Shown here: piece by piece, positions 48,016 through 59,280 of the stretch
Layout of the letters: each line of letters starts with the position of its first letter
Numbering within the stretch: the first letter of the stretch is position 1
Assembly: GCA_003104905.1 (NCBI GenBank)
Contig: PQAS01000047.1
Location: 1-64,000, forward strand
Reading direction: 5' to 3'
Source: Candidatus Methanoperedentaceae archaeon
GTDB taxonomy: Archaea > Halobacteriota > Methanosarcinia > Methanosarcinales > Methanoperedenaceae
DNA: 64,000 bases
Program-made: the position numbers and the translations under genes
The notes under the pieces: model-generated
The model's input: only the letters and a program-made list of their open reading frames with translations
Database searches by the model: none
What the model was told of the DNA's origin: nothing

Positions 48016-49281
48016 TTATTTAACTGTTTGTGAAAGGGGCAAATAATCTCCGCCATTTATTATACCTGAAGATGAGTTGTAAGGAAGGAACGTATTTCCC
48101 AGGCCGTCCCCATCCATATCCGTACCCGTATAATCCGACCAGTAATTGCCGCCCAGATAAGGTCCGCCAATAATGTTTTTATTGTATTTCTTTGAGGTGT
48201 TCCATATATTTTTTTCCTCATCATTTGCGTTGTTCTTGTTGATAAAATAGTTGTTATAAATATGGTTTTTCTTAGAATTTTTCAGGATAATGCCATTTTT
48301 ATTATTCGAGACATTATTGCCTGTTAATTTGTTTTTGTTGCTGGAACGGGACAGATAAAATCCGTTGTTATTGTTAGAAACATTGTTGGCGCCCAACACA
48401 TTATGATCGCTGGAATAAAGAAAAATGCCATTGCCAGGGTTGTTCGATGCAATGTTTCGCTTCAACGTGTTATTTTCTGATAACCACAGAGAAATGCCAT
48501 CCCAATTGTTGTTCGAAGCATTGTTGCCCGTAAGCGTGTTGTTCCGGGAATAGTAAAGAAAAATGCTGTCGCTGTTTTTTGAAGCATTGTTTCTGATAAT
48601 TTTATTGTTGTGTGAATACAACAAAGAAATGCCGCCATTGTTTTTAGAAGCATCGTTGCGGATAAGCCTGTTGTTGCCGGAACTCCTTAGATAAACAGCG
48701 CCGCTGTTGCTAAAGATATTGTTCCTGCTCAATGAATTAAAGCTGGAATCCGACAGGGAAATGCCATTCCCGCTGTTATTCGATACAATGTTTCTGATAA
48801 TGGTGTTGTTTCTGGAACCGGTTAGATAAATGCCTTTGCCGTTATTCGAAGCATTGTTGCCGACAATGGTGTTGTTGCTGGAATTGGACAGGGAAATGCC
48901 GTTACGGTTGTTCGAGACATTGTTATTCTTGATCAAATTATTATTCGAATATACAAGAATTCCCGAATTCATCCAATCACCTGTAGCCTTAAATCCTTCC
49001 AATTTAATTCTATTTGCCAACAGCATGATGGCACTTCCGTTTCCAGCAGCGTTCACCCAGGGCATTCCTATTCCGCGCAGGATCAACGGCTTTGTAACAT
49101 TAACACTTTCGTAATAAATACCTCTTTGTACTTTGATAGTATCTCCGGCAGTTGAATTATCAACAGCCCACTGTATCCTGGCATAATCATCCGGTACTAT
49201 AATTGTTACAGCACTCGCACTATTCCCCAACAATAATAAAAATATTGATATTCCTATAGCTATTCCAGGCAATCCGCTCAT
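48016..49281 (-). CDS. Secreted parallel beta-helix (NosD/PbH1) repeat protein
   Basis: 421 residues. The N-terminal signal peptide has LPGIAIGISIFLLLLGNSAS. TIIVPDDYARIQWAVDNSTA is the usual cap of this family. About ten ~23-residue Asn-rich repeats of the form NNTIxGNNASNNGxGIxLxxS follow, building a right-handed parallel beta-helix, then a capping region with YWSDYTGTDMDGDGLGNT. No C-terminal anchor is visible. Such proteins decorate archaeal surfaces. It is a paralogue of the next gene (7 bases apart), and is possibly its co-transcribed partner. Confidence 0.85.
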   Translation of the reverse strand: MSGLPGIAIGISIFLLLLGNSASAVTIIVPDDYARIQWAVDNSTAGDTIKVQRGIYYESVNVTKPLILRGIGMPWVNAAGNGSAIMLLANRIKLEGFKATGDWMNSGILVYSNNNLIKNNNVSNNRNGISLSNSSNNTIVGNNASNNGKGIYLTGSRNNTIIRNIVSNNSGNGISLSDSSFNSLSRNNIFSNSGAVYLRSSGNNRLIRNDASKNNGGISLLYSHNNKIIRNNASKNSDSIFLYYSRNNTLTGNNASNNNWDGISLWLSENNTLKRNIASNNPGNGIFLYSSDHNVLGANNVSNNNNGFYLSRSSNKNKLTGNNVSNNKNGIILKNSKKNHIYNNYFINKNNANDEEKNIWNTSKKYNKNIIGGPYLGGNYWSDYTGTDMDGDGLGNTFLPYNSSSGIINGGDYLPLSQTVK

Positions 49282-49287
49282 ATTGTA

Positions 49288-51393
49288 TCATATCCTGCTA
49301 AAAGTTCTTTTTTCAGTTTGAATCACATTCCCCTGCACATTTTGGGCATAAGCCCGGTAATTGTAAGTTCCAACTGCAAGATCAGTGAAATTTCTATACA
49401 ACCTATAAATTCCTGCGCCATAAGAAGCTTTTATTTCTTCGGAGCTTAATGCTCTCCTGTGAATGCGGACCTCGTCGATCTTTCCATTGAAACTATTTCC
49501 CCACCCGTCATTGCCGATAATAAGCATATTATGGTATCCTTTAATTGCTGATATCTTATTGGTTTCCATAAGATCACCATTCAAGTAAGAATTAAGGTCA
49601 TTTCCGTTAAAAGTTCCAGCAATATGATACCATTGTCCCGGCGTCAGGTTCTGTTTGACAGTCACCCATCGGCTTCCCTCTGGATTGCCATTAAAGTTAA
49701 ATCCCAGATAACAACCACCTGGAGCTCCATATCTCAATTGCCAGCTCCAATTCGCACTATTTGCCGGACCACCCGCCTTGCTCATTACCCCATAGTTCCC
49801 GGATATTCCGTCATCGCATTTTTCTTGAGCTGCTTCGGGATTTATCCATGCTTCAATAGTAACCGCTTTTGTAATGTTCAGGATTTCCCTGTTCCCTGCA
49901 TCAACATAGTCATTAGAACCGTCAAAACCAAGAGCATTTCCAAACTTTCCTGGTACATTAGCCGGACAGTTTTCTCCCGAACATACCGCGTTATTTCCAT
50001 GTTTGCTCCAGTCCCTGAAAAATGAAACATTCTCACCCCTTTCAATGTTAAACCTCCACCACCCCGCTAAAGAGCGGTTCCAGTCTATGAATGCTGTTGA
50101 TGATCCGTAAACTGTTGTGTTGATATACGCGTAATCTTGAGAAAGTATTGCGCCGTTTGCCGGAGTAGGATTCGTAAAGGAGATAGATGGGGGCTGGTTG
50201 GAAAGTGGCAGAGAATCCACATTATCAGAATCCAGTGCATAAGTCGCATCGCAAATACCATCGCCATTTGTATCGGAGCAGGTCTGACCAAAGCCTGTGC
50301 CGTCAGGATTTGCCCAGAAGTTGCCGCCAAGGTATGGGCCCCCCAGTATGTTGGTGCCCGATTGCTTCGTAATGCCCCAGGTATTGATATTTGAATTATA
50401 AAATAGAATATTGTTAAAATTATTATAAATGTTGTTGTAAATCAGGTTGTTGCCGGAAAATTCCAGAGAAATGCCGTAATCATTATTGGTTACATTGTTG
50501 CCACTCAGTATATTATCACTGGAAGAGGCCAGTGAAATGCCAATCCTGTTGTTGTTGGCTGCATTGTTGCCCCTGAGAAGATTGCTGCCGGAAGAGTCCA
50601 GATAGATGCCTATGCCATTGTTCGAATTGGCATTGTTTCCAATTAGAGTGTTGTTCAGGGAAGAGGTCAGGATAATCCCATTGCCATTGCCGGATGCATT
50701 GCTGCCGATAAGCGTGTTGCCGGGGGAAGAGGAAAGGCTGATGCCAAAATCATTGTTCGAGGTGGCATTGTTGCCGATAAGCGTGTTGTTCAAGGAAGAG
50801 GAAAAAGAGATGCCGTCATTTTTGTTATAACTGGCATTATTGCCGATCAGGGTGTTGTTCAAGGAAAAAGACACAGAGATGCCAGAGCCGTATTTGCCGT
50901 TCCTGCCTGAGTAGCCGTTGTTAAATGCATTGTTGCCTATCAGAGTATTGTTGACAGATTGGAAAAGGGAGAAACCATTGTTGTCGTTGTTATATGCATT
51001 GTTGCTGACCACGGTATTGCCGTTTGAAATGATTTCAATACCTTCCCCCGGATAAGAAGCCCCGGTAACATCAAAACCTTCAAGTCTAATTCCGTTCGCG
51101 GAAAGCTTGATCGCACTCTTGCTTCCCATAGCTTTTACCACCGGAGCCCCAACACCACGAAGAGTCAATTGCTTGTTCACATTGACGTTTTCGTTATATG
51201 TACCGCTTTGCACTATGATTGTATCCCTACTGCCTGCCGCATTTATCGCGTCATTTATGCTTGAGTATATGCATCCGCCGGGGCAAACCGTAAGGGTCGC
51301 TGCATTTGCGCTGCCTGCAAGCAATAATCCCAGCATCGTTATTCCAATCGCCATTTTGAGAGCATGCCTTCCATAAACTTTTTTCATGATCAT
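49288..51393 (-). CDS. Secreted beta-helix (NosD/PbH1) protein with LamG-like domain
   Basis: 701 residues. Signal peptide, cap (CIYSSINDAINAAGSRDTII), about ten Asn-rich PbH1 repeats (to about residue 330), and the YLGGNFWANPDGTGFGQTCS cap. Then comes an Ig-like bridge and a concanavalin-type LamG domain (about 440-610) with FDGSNDYVDAGNREILNITK, AVTIEAWINPEA, PGQWYHIAGTFNGNDLNSYL and GKIDEVRIHRRALSSEEIKA. It probably binds glycans on the surface or in the matrix. There is no PGF-CTERM signal. It is the upstream gene of the pair with 48016-49281. Confidence 0.87.
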   Translation of the reverse strand: MIMKKVYGRHALKMAIGITMLGLLLAGSANAATLTVCPGGCIYSSINDAINAAGSRDTIIVQSGTYNENVNVNKQLTLRGVGAPVVKAMGSKSAIKLSANGIRLEGFDVTGASYPGEGIEIISNGNTVVSNNAYNNDNNGFSLFQSVNNTLIGNNAFNNGYSGRNGKYGSGISVSFSLNNTLIGNNASYNKNDGISFSSSLNNTLIGNNATSNNDFGISLSSSPGNTLIGSNASGNGNGIILTSSLNNTLIGNNANSNNGIGIYLDSSGSNLLRGNNAANNNRIGISLASSSDNILSGNNVTNNDYGISLEFSGNNLIYNNIYNNFNNILFYNSNINTWGITKQSGTNILGGPYLGGNFWANPDGTGFGQTCSDTNGDGICDATYALDSDNVDSLPLSNQPPSISFTNPTPANGAILSQDYAYINTTVYGSSTAFIDWNRSLAGWWRFNIERGENVSFFRDWSKHGNNAVCSGENCPANVPGKFGNALGFDGSNDYVDAGNREILNITKAVTIEAWINPEAAQEKCDDGISGNYGVMSKAGGPANSANWSWQLRYGAPGGCYLGFNFNGNPEGSRWVTVKQNLTPGQWYHIAGTFNGNDLNSYLNGDLMETNKISAIKGYHNMLIIGNDGWGNSFNGKIDEVRIHRRALSSEEIKASYGAGIYRLYRNFTDLAVGTYNYRAYAQNVQGNVIQTEKRTFSRI

Positions 51394-55825: not shown

Positions 55826-55918
55826 GATATCACTTTATCCAGAGTGATGATAACATATAAGTAATTTGTGATTATTTTAGGATTATATTTTAGGCCATTT
55901 ATTCATCAGGAACCAGAT

Positions 55919-56947
55919 ATGGAAATTCCCGCCGTCCTCCTGCCATTACTCATATTGGGTGTCAGTTTGATCATAGCTGCGGCTATAAGTGTCATTATAA
56001 AGATCCTGCAAAAAAAAGCGGAAAAGACAAATACAAAAATAGATGATATTATTTTGCATACGATCGGAAGACCCCTGTATATTCTTGTGATAGTAGGCGG
56101 GATCTATTATGCCATACACCAGACCCCGTTCCTTGCGGATCTAATAAATAGATACGATCAGGGATATGAGTACAGGCGCTTCATTGTCACTATTTTCCTG
56201 ACCTGGATAATTGCATCGCTGGTAAAGAGAATTATCAAGGAATACGGGTATGAAATTGCCGCAAAGACAGAAGAAGAAATGGATGACAGGCTTGTGGCTC
56301 TTGCCGATATGTCGGTAACATATATTATCTGGGCATTTGGCTTAATGCTTGCATTAGCCGGTGTAGGGATTGAAATAGCACCCCTTGTCACTGGAATGGG
56401 AATTCTCGGCCTTGCGGTCGCACTGGCCGCCCAGAACCTGCTTTCAAATGTTTTTGGCGGCGTTACCATTACCCTTGACCAGCTTTATAAAATTGGGGAC
56501 AGAGTAGAAATGGGCGGAGTATATGGAGATGTATATGAAATAAAACCCAGGTATACAATGATAAAAACATTGAATAATACCATTGTCACGATTCCAAATT
56601 CCAAAGTAATTAACGAGCAGATAATCAATTATGCAGTGCCTGATGACACGGTTAGAGTAAAGATACCAGTCAATGTAGCTTATGGCACTGACCCGAAACG
56701 AGTAGAGAAAATCCTGCTTGAGATCTCAGATAAGATATCCCTGATCCTGAAAGAACCTCAGGCAACCGTGCGTTTTACAGAATATGCTTCTTCCTCACAG
56801 AACTTAGAATTGATCGTATGGGTGAGGCATTATGATGAAAGACATACTGTTATTGACCGGATATTAAGGGAGATGTTCTTTAAGTTTAAGAGTGAAGGCA
56901 TCGAGATGCCATTTAACCAGATGGATGTCCATATTAAGAAAGATTGA
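55919..56947 (+). CDS. MscS-family mechanosensitive ion channel (second)
   Basis: About 342 residues from ATG 55919 (MEIPAVLLPLLILGVSLIIA); a GTG at 55868 could add 17 residues. It has about four membrane segments, then the pore helix LAVALAAQNLLSNVFGGVTI (residues ~165-185), the beta domain with YKIGDRVEMGGVYGDVYEI, and NTIVTIPNSKVINEQIINYA. The C-terminal domain is complete. Together with MscL and the first MscS, the window encodes three independent tension-gated channels. Confidence 0.93.
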   Translation: MEIPAVLLPLLILGVSLIIAAAISVIIKILQKKAEKTNTKIDDIILHTIGRPLYILVIVGGIYYAIHQTPFLADLINRYDQGYEYRRFIVTIFLTWIIASLVKRIIKEYGYEIAAKTEEEMDDRLVALADMSVTYIIWAFGLMLALAGVGIEIAPLVTGMGILGLAVALAAQNLLSNVFGGVTITLDQLYKIGDRVEMGGVYGDVYEIKPRYTMIKTLNNTIVTIPNSKVINEQIINYAVPDDTVRVKIPVNVAYGTDPKRVEKILLEISDKISLILKEPQATVRFTEYASSSQNLELIVWVRHYDERHTVIDRILREMFFKFKSEGIEMPFNQMDVHIKKD

Positions 56948-57081
56948 TGATTTTTTCATCGAAGAGGACCATATGAGTTTCAAACCTGAGAGGAATGCCA
57001 AATGAAAACTCACAAATAGTGCCGCCTATTTAGAACAAATAAATAATATGCAATTGAATGGATTTATAGAAAAGATTGAAA

Positions 57082-58410
57082 TCAGCCATCCATCGAATAT
57101 GGCGGAAGACGAATTTCCAGGACTCCTCTCATTACCAATGCAAAAATTCCATTTAGAACCAATTCTGAATCTAAATCCAAATCGTATGTACACTCCTTTA
57201 GATTAAATTTATTATGATTTGACATATATTCAAAAATTTTCCTTATATTTTCCTCTCCCAATTGATCAAGTTTAACTGATGCAGATAAGGACTTCTCATT
57301 AAACAATCCTGTCCAGGATTCAGGAATTTTCTTAATTTCCAAAATTACATCCGAGTTGATCAATCTATCAATAATTATCAGCATAGCTTGTCGTTGCTTG
57401 ATTTTTTCGGCATGGAAAATTTTTGGCTTGATAAAAGTTCCAAATTTCACGGCTTCTTCTCTCTTCAAAGAAATCGTCTTGGACAAACCATCAAGTTCCG
57501 GATCTGCTTTGGAACTTAACGGATTAATTACATTCAGCGCTCCTGCAAGATCTAATGGTCTTCTGGTGGCCAAAGCTGTAAGAAAATCCGCATATAATTC
57601 CTGTTGACTGAGTGTTGGTAAGTCCTTCTGCAACAAATTAATAAAACTGGAACCTATATGAAAAGTACCAATTAATCCGGGCAATAGAACAATTATCGAA
57701 ACAATTGCTACCCCAAAATAATTGGAAAAATTGGTTATGGATAAAACGACTGTTAATAGCGTTATCAATTCTGCTAAAGGGAAAAATAATAAAATACCAA
57801 AAGAAAGATCCTCATATTTTTCAGTAACTTTTTCAGTAAAAGAATTCATAGTAGCACTCCTGGCACGATAGATTTCATTAGTTAGAGCTGCTTCTAACTC
57901 ATCTTCGCTCAGGACATCCAGAACAGCTTCAGATATAACAATCGTCCCCATTTGTTCGCCTGTCCCGAAAATAGGCGGTTCAAAAGGTTTTGACACTACC
58001 AGCAGTTTTGGGGGACTCATGTCCAGTTTCTTAGAAATATTATTCAATAAGGATATTGCATCGTTATTTTCAACTGAGTACGGATAAAGCTCACTCAATT
58101 TAGGAGATAGGGTTTCCTTTATTCCGTCATGTAGTTTTAAGAAAGCAGGTATTAGCATCAAATAAAGGACAATGGCAACATATGCCCGATATATGGTAAC
58201 ATGAGTATAGATTTCTGTTTCACCTATTCCTTCTATAAACGCGTAATAATATGGGCTGACTACCCCTATTAATGATAACAGCACAAGAGCTATAATATTA
58301 GAAAGGCACACATACAGCCCTATTTTGGTCAGGCGCAACCATTCAAACGTAAGAGTATTAACAATTGGAACAATAGATATTGGTTTTGAAGCGGTTTTTT
58401 CCTGGTGCAT
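57082..58410 (-). CDS. Membrane protein resembling M48 (HtpX-like) peptidases, active site lost
   Basis: 442 residues. Two N-terminal membrane helices are followed by KLDMSPPKLLVVSKPFEPPI and GTIVISEAVLDVLSEDELEA, which align with the M48/HtpX core. The zinc motif HExxH expected in that helix is ALTNEIYRARS here, with no histidine. Two more helices follow, and then QQELYADFLTALATRRPLDL corresponds to the ExxAD third-ligand helix with Glu kept. The C-terminal ~130 residues are winged-helix-like and soluble. A zinc peptidase is therefore excluded unless another metal site exists; it may act as a pseudoprotease scaffold. Family assignment is from motif order only. Confidence 0.6.
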   Translation of the reverse strand: MHQEKTASKPISIVPIVNTLTFEWLRLTKIGLYVCLSNIIALVLLSLIGVVSPYYYAFIEGIGETEIYTHVTIYRAYVAIVLYLMLIPAFLKLHDGIKETLSPKLSELYPYSVENNDAISLLNNISKKLDMSPPKLLVVSKPFEPPIFGTGEQMGTIVISEAVLDVLSEDELEAALTNEIYRARSATMNSFTEKVTEKYEDLSFGILLFFPLAELITLLTVVLSITNFSNYFGVAIVSIIVLLPGLIGTFHIGSSFINLLQKDLPTLSQQELYADFLTALATRRPLDLAGALNVINPLSSKADPELDGLSKTISLKREEAVKFGTFIKPKIFHAEKIKQRQAMLIIIDRLINSDVILEIKKIPESWTGLFNEKSLSASVKLDQLGEENIRKIFEYMSNHNKFNLKECTYDLDLDSELVLNGIFALVMRGVLEIRLPPYSMDG

Positions 58411-58522
58411 TTAAAATGAAGTTGTTTTGCTTCTGTATAAACATGATGGCTCGAAATTAAGCCAGAAGCATTTCATTAAATATAAAACACAGTAAATCAA
58501 TAAAAAGTAGATTACCCATAAA

Positions 58523-58933
58523 ATGGAATTAAAACGAAAAACATTACTTTCCGTCGGATGCGCACTTGTACTGGCATTAGGCCTTATCATCCTTCTTGTT
58601 CTTCTAACAGCCCTGCCAATATCCTATTTTTCAATTATGGTTCAAAAGTTTATCCTGATCTTGATTTTTATTTTCTCATTAATTACGGTGCCTGTTATTT
58701 TACGAAAATTGAACCGGCTTCCAAATGAGAAACAGATACTCGGCTGGACATTTATTGGGCTCGGAGTGGAATTTATGATATTTCCGTTCATGCTATTGAT
58801 CTATATCTTTAATTTTTCATCCGCAATCAGTATGATTATCGGAGTATCTATCGTGATGCTTTCTTTGATTTTCGGATTGTCAGCGGGATTAATGAGTATC
58901 GTAATGGGAATTTCATTGGTTAAAAGAAAATAA
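58523..58933 (+). CDS. Small four-helix membrane protein
   Basis: 136 residues with four hydrophobic segments (about 10-35, 40-60, 75-95 and 100-130). The basic loop KLNRLPNEKQILGW separates the two halves and the C-terminus is basic (VKRK). I do not recognise a family. The gene ends 11 bases before the thioredoxin-like gene, so co-transcription is likely. Confidence 0.7.
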   Translation: MELKRKTLLSVGCALVLALGLIILLVLLTALPISYFSIMVQKFILILIFIFSLITVPVILRKLNRLPNEKQILGWTFIGLGVEFMIFPFMLLIYIFNFSSAISMIIGVSIVMLSLIFGLSAGLMSIVMGISLVKRK

Positions 58934-58944
58934 CGAGGAATAAC

Positions 58945-59280
58945 ATGGATGATGAACTTGCACAGATAAAAAAGAAGAGACTCGAAGAATTGATGAAACG
59001 CCAGCAAGAGGCTGTAACTCCAAAACCCCGGACTATAATAGAAGTATTCACCTCCCCAACATGTCCACACTGCCCAAGGGCGCTGGCAATGGCACAGGAA
59101 CTTGCTTCACAGATGCCAGGAGTACAGGCATTTGAGGTCTCAACAGCTACGCCACAGGGCTTTGCCAAGGCTGCGTTATATGATGTTAAGGCCGTCCCAA
59201 CAGTGTTCATTAACCGCAAACGCGTTTTTGTTGGAGCACCGCCATCTATCGAAGCATTGCGACAGGCATTGAAAAGTTAA
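58945..59280 (+). CDS. Thioredoxin/glutaredoxin-like protein (CPHC) with basic N-terminal helix
   Basis: 111 residues. The redox motif TSPTCPHCPRALAMA is at residues ~36-50, the cis-proline motif AVPTVFINRKRVFVG follows, and the fold is a compact thioredoxin. The first ~28 residues (DDELAQIKKKRLEELMKRQQ) form a charged helix that resembles the N-terminus of PDCD5-type DNA-binding proteins; this is likely analogy. The protein is cytoplasmic (no signal peptide). Its stop overlaps the stop of the convergent gene at 59277 by 4 bases. Confidence 0.88.
   Translation: MDDELAQIKKKRLEELMKRQQEAVTPKPRTIIEVFTSPTCPHCPRALAMAQELASQMPGVQAFEVSTATPQGFAKAALYDVKAVPTVFINRKRVFVGAPPSIEALRQALKS

What the first reader, a model, noticed from the sequence alone, without database searches (positions are those of the whole stretch)
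57082..58410. M48-like membrane protein that has lost its HExxH
The flanking motifs PPIFGTGEQMGTIVISEAVL, LSEDELEAAL and QELYAD keep the order of HtpX-like peptidases, but the zinc helix reads TNEIYRARS. A membrane pseudoprotease with a winged-helix-like tail could be a regulator.
Basis: partly seen in the sequence, partly recalled or inferred. Interest (0 to 1): 0.6.

Follow-up and report, generated by a model that had tools for sequence, protein, structure and literature searches.

The report
Dead HtpX-like membrane protease gene
One archaeal genome carries a rapidly evolving, recently inserted gene for a membrane protein of the HtpX protease family that has lost both zinc-holding histidines, so it probably cannot cut proteins and may only bind them; it is a real but modest oddity, and the same kind of loss turned up repeatedly in another set of archaeal genes.

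Summary
The ORF at 57082-58410 (-), 442 aa, is a remote M48/HtpX homologue. Pfam misses it. A profile of active archaeal M48s scores it 45.6 bits (E 5e-13), against 10.1 bits for the best of 2000 shuffles, and hhalign agrees (E 1.4e-8 over residues 120-305). HExxH reads N178-E-I-Y-R182: both zinc histidines are gone. The catalytic Glu and the third-ligand block (E271...D275) remain. Hydrophobic helices sit where HtpX has them. The genome also has three M48 genes with intact HExxH. The 'winged-helix' tail was not confirmed (low-confidence models, no fold hit).

New context: in most sister species the flanking MscS and 136-aa membrane genes abut. Only this genome and one sister carry the M48-like gene, as a 1.57-kb insert, and the sister keeps only about 97 codons. 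There dN/dS is 0.18, so the N-terminus was conserved as protein. Best reading: a lineage-restricted membrane pseudoprotease that binds rather than cuts, expendable in one sister.

By-product: of 45 M48-like genes in archaeosortase-C/DUF1616-type loci, 27 lack HExxH (RExxH, RExxR, CExxK, LExxK, HExxR), lost repeatedly on the tree. P0001 is not shown to belong with them.

The parts
57082..58410 (-). M48/HtpX-like pseudoprotease ORF, 442 aa (P0001)
   Evidence: ORF and translation; M48 homology
58120..58332 (-). N-terminal hydrophobic pair (residues about 27-59 and 71-97), joined by a short loop without K or R
   Evidence: hydropathy scan; matches the two N-terminal helices of HtpX
57865..57879 (-). 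Degenerate zinc motif: residues 178-182 N-E-I-Y-R where active members have H-E-x-x-H
   Evidence: alignments
57640..57810 (-). Second hydrophobic region (residues about 201-257), between the HExxH position and the third-ligand block, as in HtpX
   Evidence: hydropathy scan, alignments
57586..57600 (-). Third-ligand block E271-L-Y-A-D275, conserved with active M48 (RExxAD)
57085..57357 (-). C-terminal extension, residues about 352-442, beyond the M48 core; fold unresolved, possibly HTH-like
   Evidence: absent from HtpX-sized relatives; models of low confidence, no significant fold hit
56948..58522 (.). Insert of about 1.57 kb holding the gene, splitting an MscS / 136-aa membrane protein pair that abuts in most congeners
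55868..56947 (+). Left neighbour: MscS-type mechanosensitive channel
   Evidence: Pfam MS_channel_2nd E 1.9e-19, MS_channel_3rd E 1.4e-15
58523..58933 (+). Right neighbour: 136-aa multi-helix membrane protein of unknown family; a thioredoxin-like gene follows at 58945-59280

Best explanation
The gene encodes a membrane-anchored HtpX-type (M48) protein that no longer binds zinc in the standard way and is probably not a peptidase. SHOWN: M48 homology, loss of both zinc histidines, retention of the catalytic Glu, of the third-ligand block and of the helix pattern, and presence of active paralogues. SHOWN: the gene is a lineage-restricted insert between two genes that normally abut. INFERRED: the M48 core and the tail of about 90 residues face the cytoplasm, and R182 may take the place of the metal's charge beside E179/E271. 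INFERRED: the protein acts by binding, either holding membrane-protein segments or stress substrates, or competing with or partnering the active HtpX of the same cell. It is dispensable, since the sister species has deleted all but the first 97 codons or so.
For: hhalign and HMM homology with shuffle control; motif alignment; no HExxH in P0001, whereas the Archaeoglobales and haloarchaeal M48 proteins it matches best keep it; hydrophobic helices with a K/R-poor outer loop; three active M48 genes in the genome; dN/dS 0.18 over the 92 codons comparable with the sister, like its neighbours at 0.18-0.21; full-length open frame of 442 codons; conserved leader just upstream of the start in both species; parallel, repeated loss of HExxH in other intact archaeal M48 genes.
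Against: The gene is present in 2 of 31 congeneric genomes and truncated in one, which suits a gene on its way out. Only the N-terminal 92 codons can be tested for selection; nothing tests the M48 core or the tail. Synonymous divergence there (0.65) is about twice that of the neighbours (0.28), unexplained. No structure could be predicted with confidence. No binding partner is indicated by the neighbourhood.
Confidence: 0.6

Rival explanations
1. The gene is a transient insert in decay: an M48 gene brought in beside MscS that lost its active site because nothing maintains it, already mostly deleted in the sister species.
For: 2 of 31 congeners, truncated in one; very long branch, 3.0 changes per site; low GC3 of 0.31 against 0.33-0.50 for the other window genes sampled; no close homologue elsewhere in 238 genomes of the class.
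Against: 442 codons open; E179, E271, D275 and the motif order are still kept after extreme divergence; dN/dS 0.18 over the shared N-terminus.
Confidence: 0.25
2. It is still an enzyme, using another metal arrangement (for example E179, E271 and an outside residue) or non-metal chemistry.
For: E179, E271 and D275 are kept.
Against: Asn and Arg stand at the histidine positions; Arg beside a metal site is unfavourable (general knowledge of zincins).
Confidence: 0.07
3. It is a stray member of the archaeosortase-C-linked M48 pseudoproteases that has lost its genomic partners.
For: Within the class, several of its best matches were those proteins; the AU test does not reject union with the whole ArtC-linked set, p 0.18.
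Against: Union with the main pseudoprotease clade is borderline, p 0.053, and the free tree puts it elsewhere; better matches exist among active Archaeoglobales and haloarchaeal M48; no archaeosortase or DUF1616 gene adjoins it.
Confidence: 0.08

Closest known systems
HtpX, MEROPS M48B (NCBIfam PRK02391, PRK03001 and others; Pfam PF01435)
   Same: Order of motifs, two helices before and two between the HExxH and ExxAD positions, homology over residues 44-305
   Different: Both zinc histidines replaced (N178, R182); below every curated cut-off; extra tail of about 90 residues; about 20-25% identity
M48 proteins of Archaeoglobales and Halobacteria (such as L101/L140, L104)
   Same: Strongest pairwise matches, roughly 25-32% identity over parts of residues 33-299
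   Different: All keep HExxH; none shown to carry the same tail
Archaeosortase-C-linked M48 genes of Methanosarcinales
   Same: Many also lack HExxH, often with Arg or Lys at the histidine positions
   Different: They lie beside ArtC and DUF1616 genes and most of the inactive ones have lost the third-ligand Glu too; P0001 has neither partner and keeps E271

Membership tests
Peptidase family M48 / HtpX (as active peptidase) | HExxH zinc motif | tested here: not met
   N178-E-I-Y-R182 in its place
Peptidase family M48 / HtpX (as active peptidase) | Third zinc ligand Glu in the RExxAD block | tested here: met
   Q-E271-L-Y-A-D275
Peptidase family M48 / HtpX (as homologue) | Significant profile similarity | tested here: met
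   hhalign E 1.4e-8, HMM E 5e-13 with shuffle control; Pfam PF01435 itself gives no match
Peptidase family M48 / HtpX (as homologue) | Paired membrane helices before and within the protease domain | tested here: met
   hydrophobic segments 27-59, 71-97, 201-257
Peptidase family M48 / HtpX (as homologue) | M48 fold | tested here: inconclusive
   AlphaFold model pLDDT 39.7 with 3 sequences
Winged-helix domain (tail) | Winged-helix fold | tested here: inconclusive
   pLDDT about 55-71 in the full model, 51 alone; best Foldseek E 4.8
Archaeosortase-C-linked M48 genes | Adjacent ArtC and DUF1616 genes | tested here: not met
   neighbours are MscS, a 136-aa membrane protein and a thioredoxin; the exosortase-family genes of the genome lie on other contigs

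The most novel reading that the evidence does not exclude
Membrane M48 pseudoproteases form a recurrent, functional class in archaea: the archaeosortase-C loci repeatedly turned their HtpX-like gene into a non-cutting subunit, and P0001 is an independent case that gained a cytoplasmic tail able to pass a membrane signal on.
Probability: 0.2. Interest if true: 0.65.

Novelty: new variant of a known kind. Interest (0 to 1): 0.4.

Why it matters
Pseudoproteases are well known for rhomboids (iRhoms; general knowledge), but I found no described case for membrane M48/HtpX proteins (literature searches; a limited open-access library). If functional, this protein and the archaeosortase-C-linked series would give a set of natural inactivations, with active sisters for comparison, in which to ask what an HtpX scaffold does without cutting.

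Tried and rejected
Kinship with the ArtC-linked pseudoproteases on the strength of shared HExxH loss: not supported by tree or neighbourhood. Looking for relatives of the gene inside the other inserts between MscS and the 136-aa gene (G021, G018, G019) and in weak-match regions of G018, G020 and G024: tblastn found nothing. Weak matches of the tail to a 2-isopropylmalate synthase-like ORF (L030) and an ArsR-like ORF (L017) look like chance. Viral contigs: no relative. Genome contigs: no close relative from the protein alone; two active Archaeoglobales M48 from a small alignment. Flanking repeats or target-site duplications of the insert: none convincing. Structure: two AlphaFold jobs, both of low confidence; Foldseek on the tail without a usable hit.

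Full report
What is there. The minus-strand ORF 57082-58410 starts with ATG and runs 442 codons without interruption. Pfam gives no M48 match, but NCBIfam shows four HtpX models among five weak matches, best E 7e-4 over residues 120-191.

Is it M48? Yes, as a remote homologue. hhalign against 12 active HtpX-type proteins from related genomes gives 95.5% probability, E 1.4e-8, residues 120-305, including the second block QELYADFLTALATRRPLDLAGALNVI against EFAADRGSALITGQPSHLASALMNI. An HMM built only from active archaeal M48 proteins scores 45.6 bits, E 5e-13, over residues 44-298; the best of 2000 shuffles that keep each 40-residue segment's composition scores 10.1 bits. Searches of 238 genomes of the class and 393 of the phylum return mainly matches to residues about 60-190 (some to 300) in ORFs of M48 size; those read were M48 proteins. 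The best are Archaeoglobales proteins of about 335 aa (named through) and haloarchaeal proteins of about 400 aa; all of these that were read keep HExxH.

What is lost and kept. HExxH is N178-E179-I180-Y181-R182. E179, and the E271-L-Y-A-D275 block that carries the third ligand in active members, are kept. Hydrophobic segments at 27-59, 71-97 and 201-257 match the HtpX plan. The short loop 53-72 has no K or R, whereas 98-204 and 258-442 are rich in charge, so the core and tail are probably cytoplasmic (inference from the positive-inside rule). The genome has three other M48 genes, all with HExxH. The C-terminal 90 residues lie beyond the M48 core. A full-length model from three sequences is poor (mean pLDDT 39.7), its tail reaching about 55-71 with helix-strand-helix-helix-strand order. 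The tail alone gives pLDDT 51 with another pattern and no significant structural neighbour. The winged helix is therefore neither shown nor excluded.

Where it sits. In the genus (31 genomes) the MscS gene and the 136-aa membrane gene abut within a few bases in most species that have both (for example G002, G003, G006, G013, G016, G017, G022, G025, G026, G030). In this genome they are split by a 1.57-kb insert holding only the M48-like gene, in the opposite direction. Species G004 shares the insert, but its copy keeps only about 97 codons and then runs into sequence beside the end of MscS. No other genome of the class has a close homologue. The insert has no clear flanking repeats. Over the 92 codons alignable with G004, dN/dS is 0.18, like the neighbours (0.18 to 0.21 for MscS, the 136-aa gene and thioredoxin), so this part was conserved as protein; but dS is 0.65 against 0.28-0.36 for the flanking genes, which I cannot explain. 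A separate history of the two copies, for example by transfer, is one possibility.

Interpretation. Loss of both zinc histidines makes zinc-dependent proteolysis very unlikely. The retained sequence signature and the selection on the N-terminus favour a binding role over mere decay, but the core and tail cannot be tested with one full-length copy. The decay reading keeps a substantial probability.

By-product. The within-class search also drew out M48-like genes beside archaeosortase C (TIGR03762, E 5.7e-88, checked on L012) and DUF1616 (PF07760, E 5.1e-60). A survey with an alignment of them and reading of 45 loci found HExxH in 18 and a degenerate motif in 27: 11 RExxR, 8 RExxH, 5 CExxK, 1 LExxK, 2 HExxR. 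ArtC-like or DUF1616-like neighbours were detected at most of these loci, though not at all within the short stretches held. On the tree the 'inactive' label needs at least three changes, gains and losses not being told apart, and one pair of close relatives (L010 HExxH, L154 RExxH) differs in the first histidine. P0001's own place on the tree is unsure (end branch 3.0); union with the main pseudoprotease clade is borderline (p-AU 0.053) and with all ArtC-linked genes is not rejected (p 0.18).

Identity of the organism. An order that looks like Methanosarcinales, a many-species genus and an HdrD/TfrB-like gene suggest Candidatus Methanoperedens; this is inference only.

Literature. No paper in the open-access library joined HtpX with pseudoprotease or Peptidase M48 with Methanoperedens. 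A review describes archaeal HtpX as a likely quality-control protease (PMC9263693). Archaeosortase C and its PEF-CTERM signal in ANME-2d are described in PMC5244752 without mention of M48. The library is incomplete, so absence there is weak evidence of novelty.

Noticed in passing
L142-L183 and L006, L010, L019, L032, L118 (loci): M48-like genes in archaeosortase-C/DUF1616-type loci of Methanosarcinales: 27 of 45 lack HExxH in graded forms (RExxH, RExxR, CExxK, LExxK, HExxR), with active sisters in Methanosarcina-like genomes.
   Followed up: partly
L043, L044, L055 (upstream of the 136-aa gene in G018, G021, G001): Where the MscS and 136-aa genes are far apart in other species, a copy of the MscS end (AAGAAAGATTGAA) stands just before the 136-aa gene, as if the MscS 3' end were an integration site; the cargo read in G018 and G021 differs (glycan genes; IS-type transposase, AAA-like ATPase).
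   Followed up: partly
window 57082-58410 against L005: Synonymous divergence of the shared N-terminal 92 codons (0.65) is about twice that of the neighbouring genes (0.28-0.36) between the same two species.
   Followed up: no
L038:7473-9135 (G000 contig C43): Tandem pair of M48 genes (224 aa short form; 321 aa with an inserted segment IDIDGSGTIDINELLAL resembling an EF-hand or dockerin loop), both with HExxH.
   Followed up: no
window 48016-51393: Two adjacent genes of parallel beta-helix/NosD-like repeats (421 and 701 aa).
   Followed up: no
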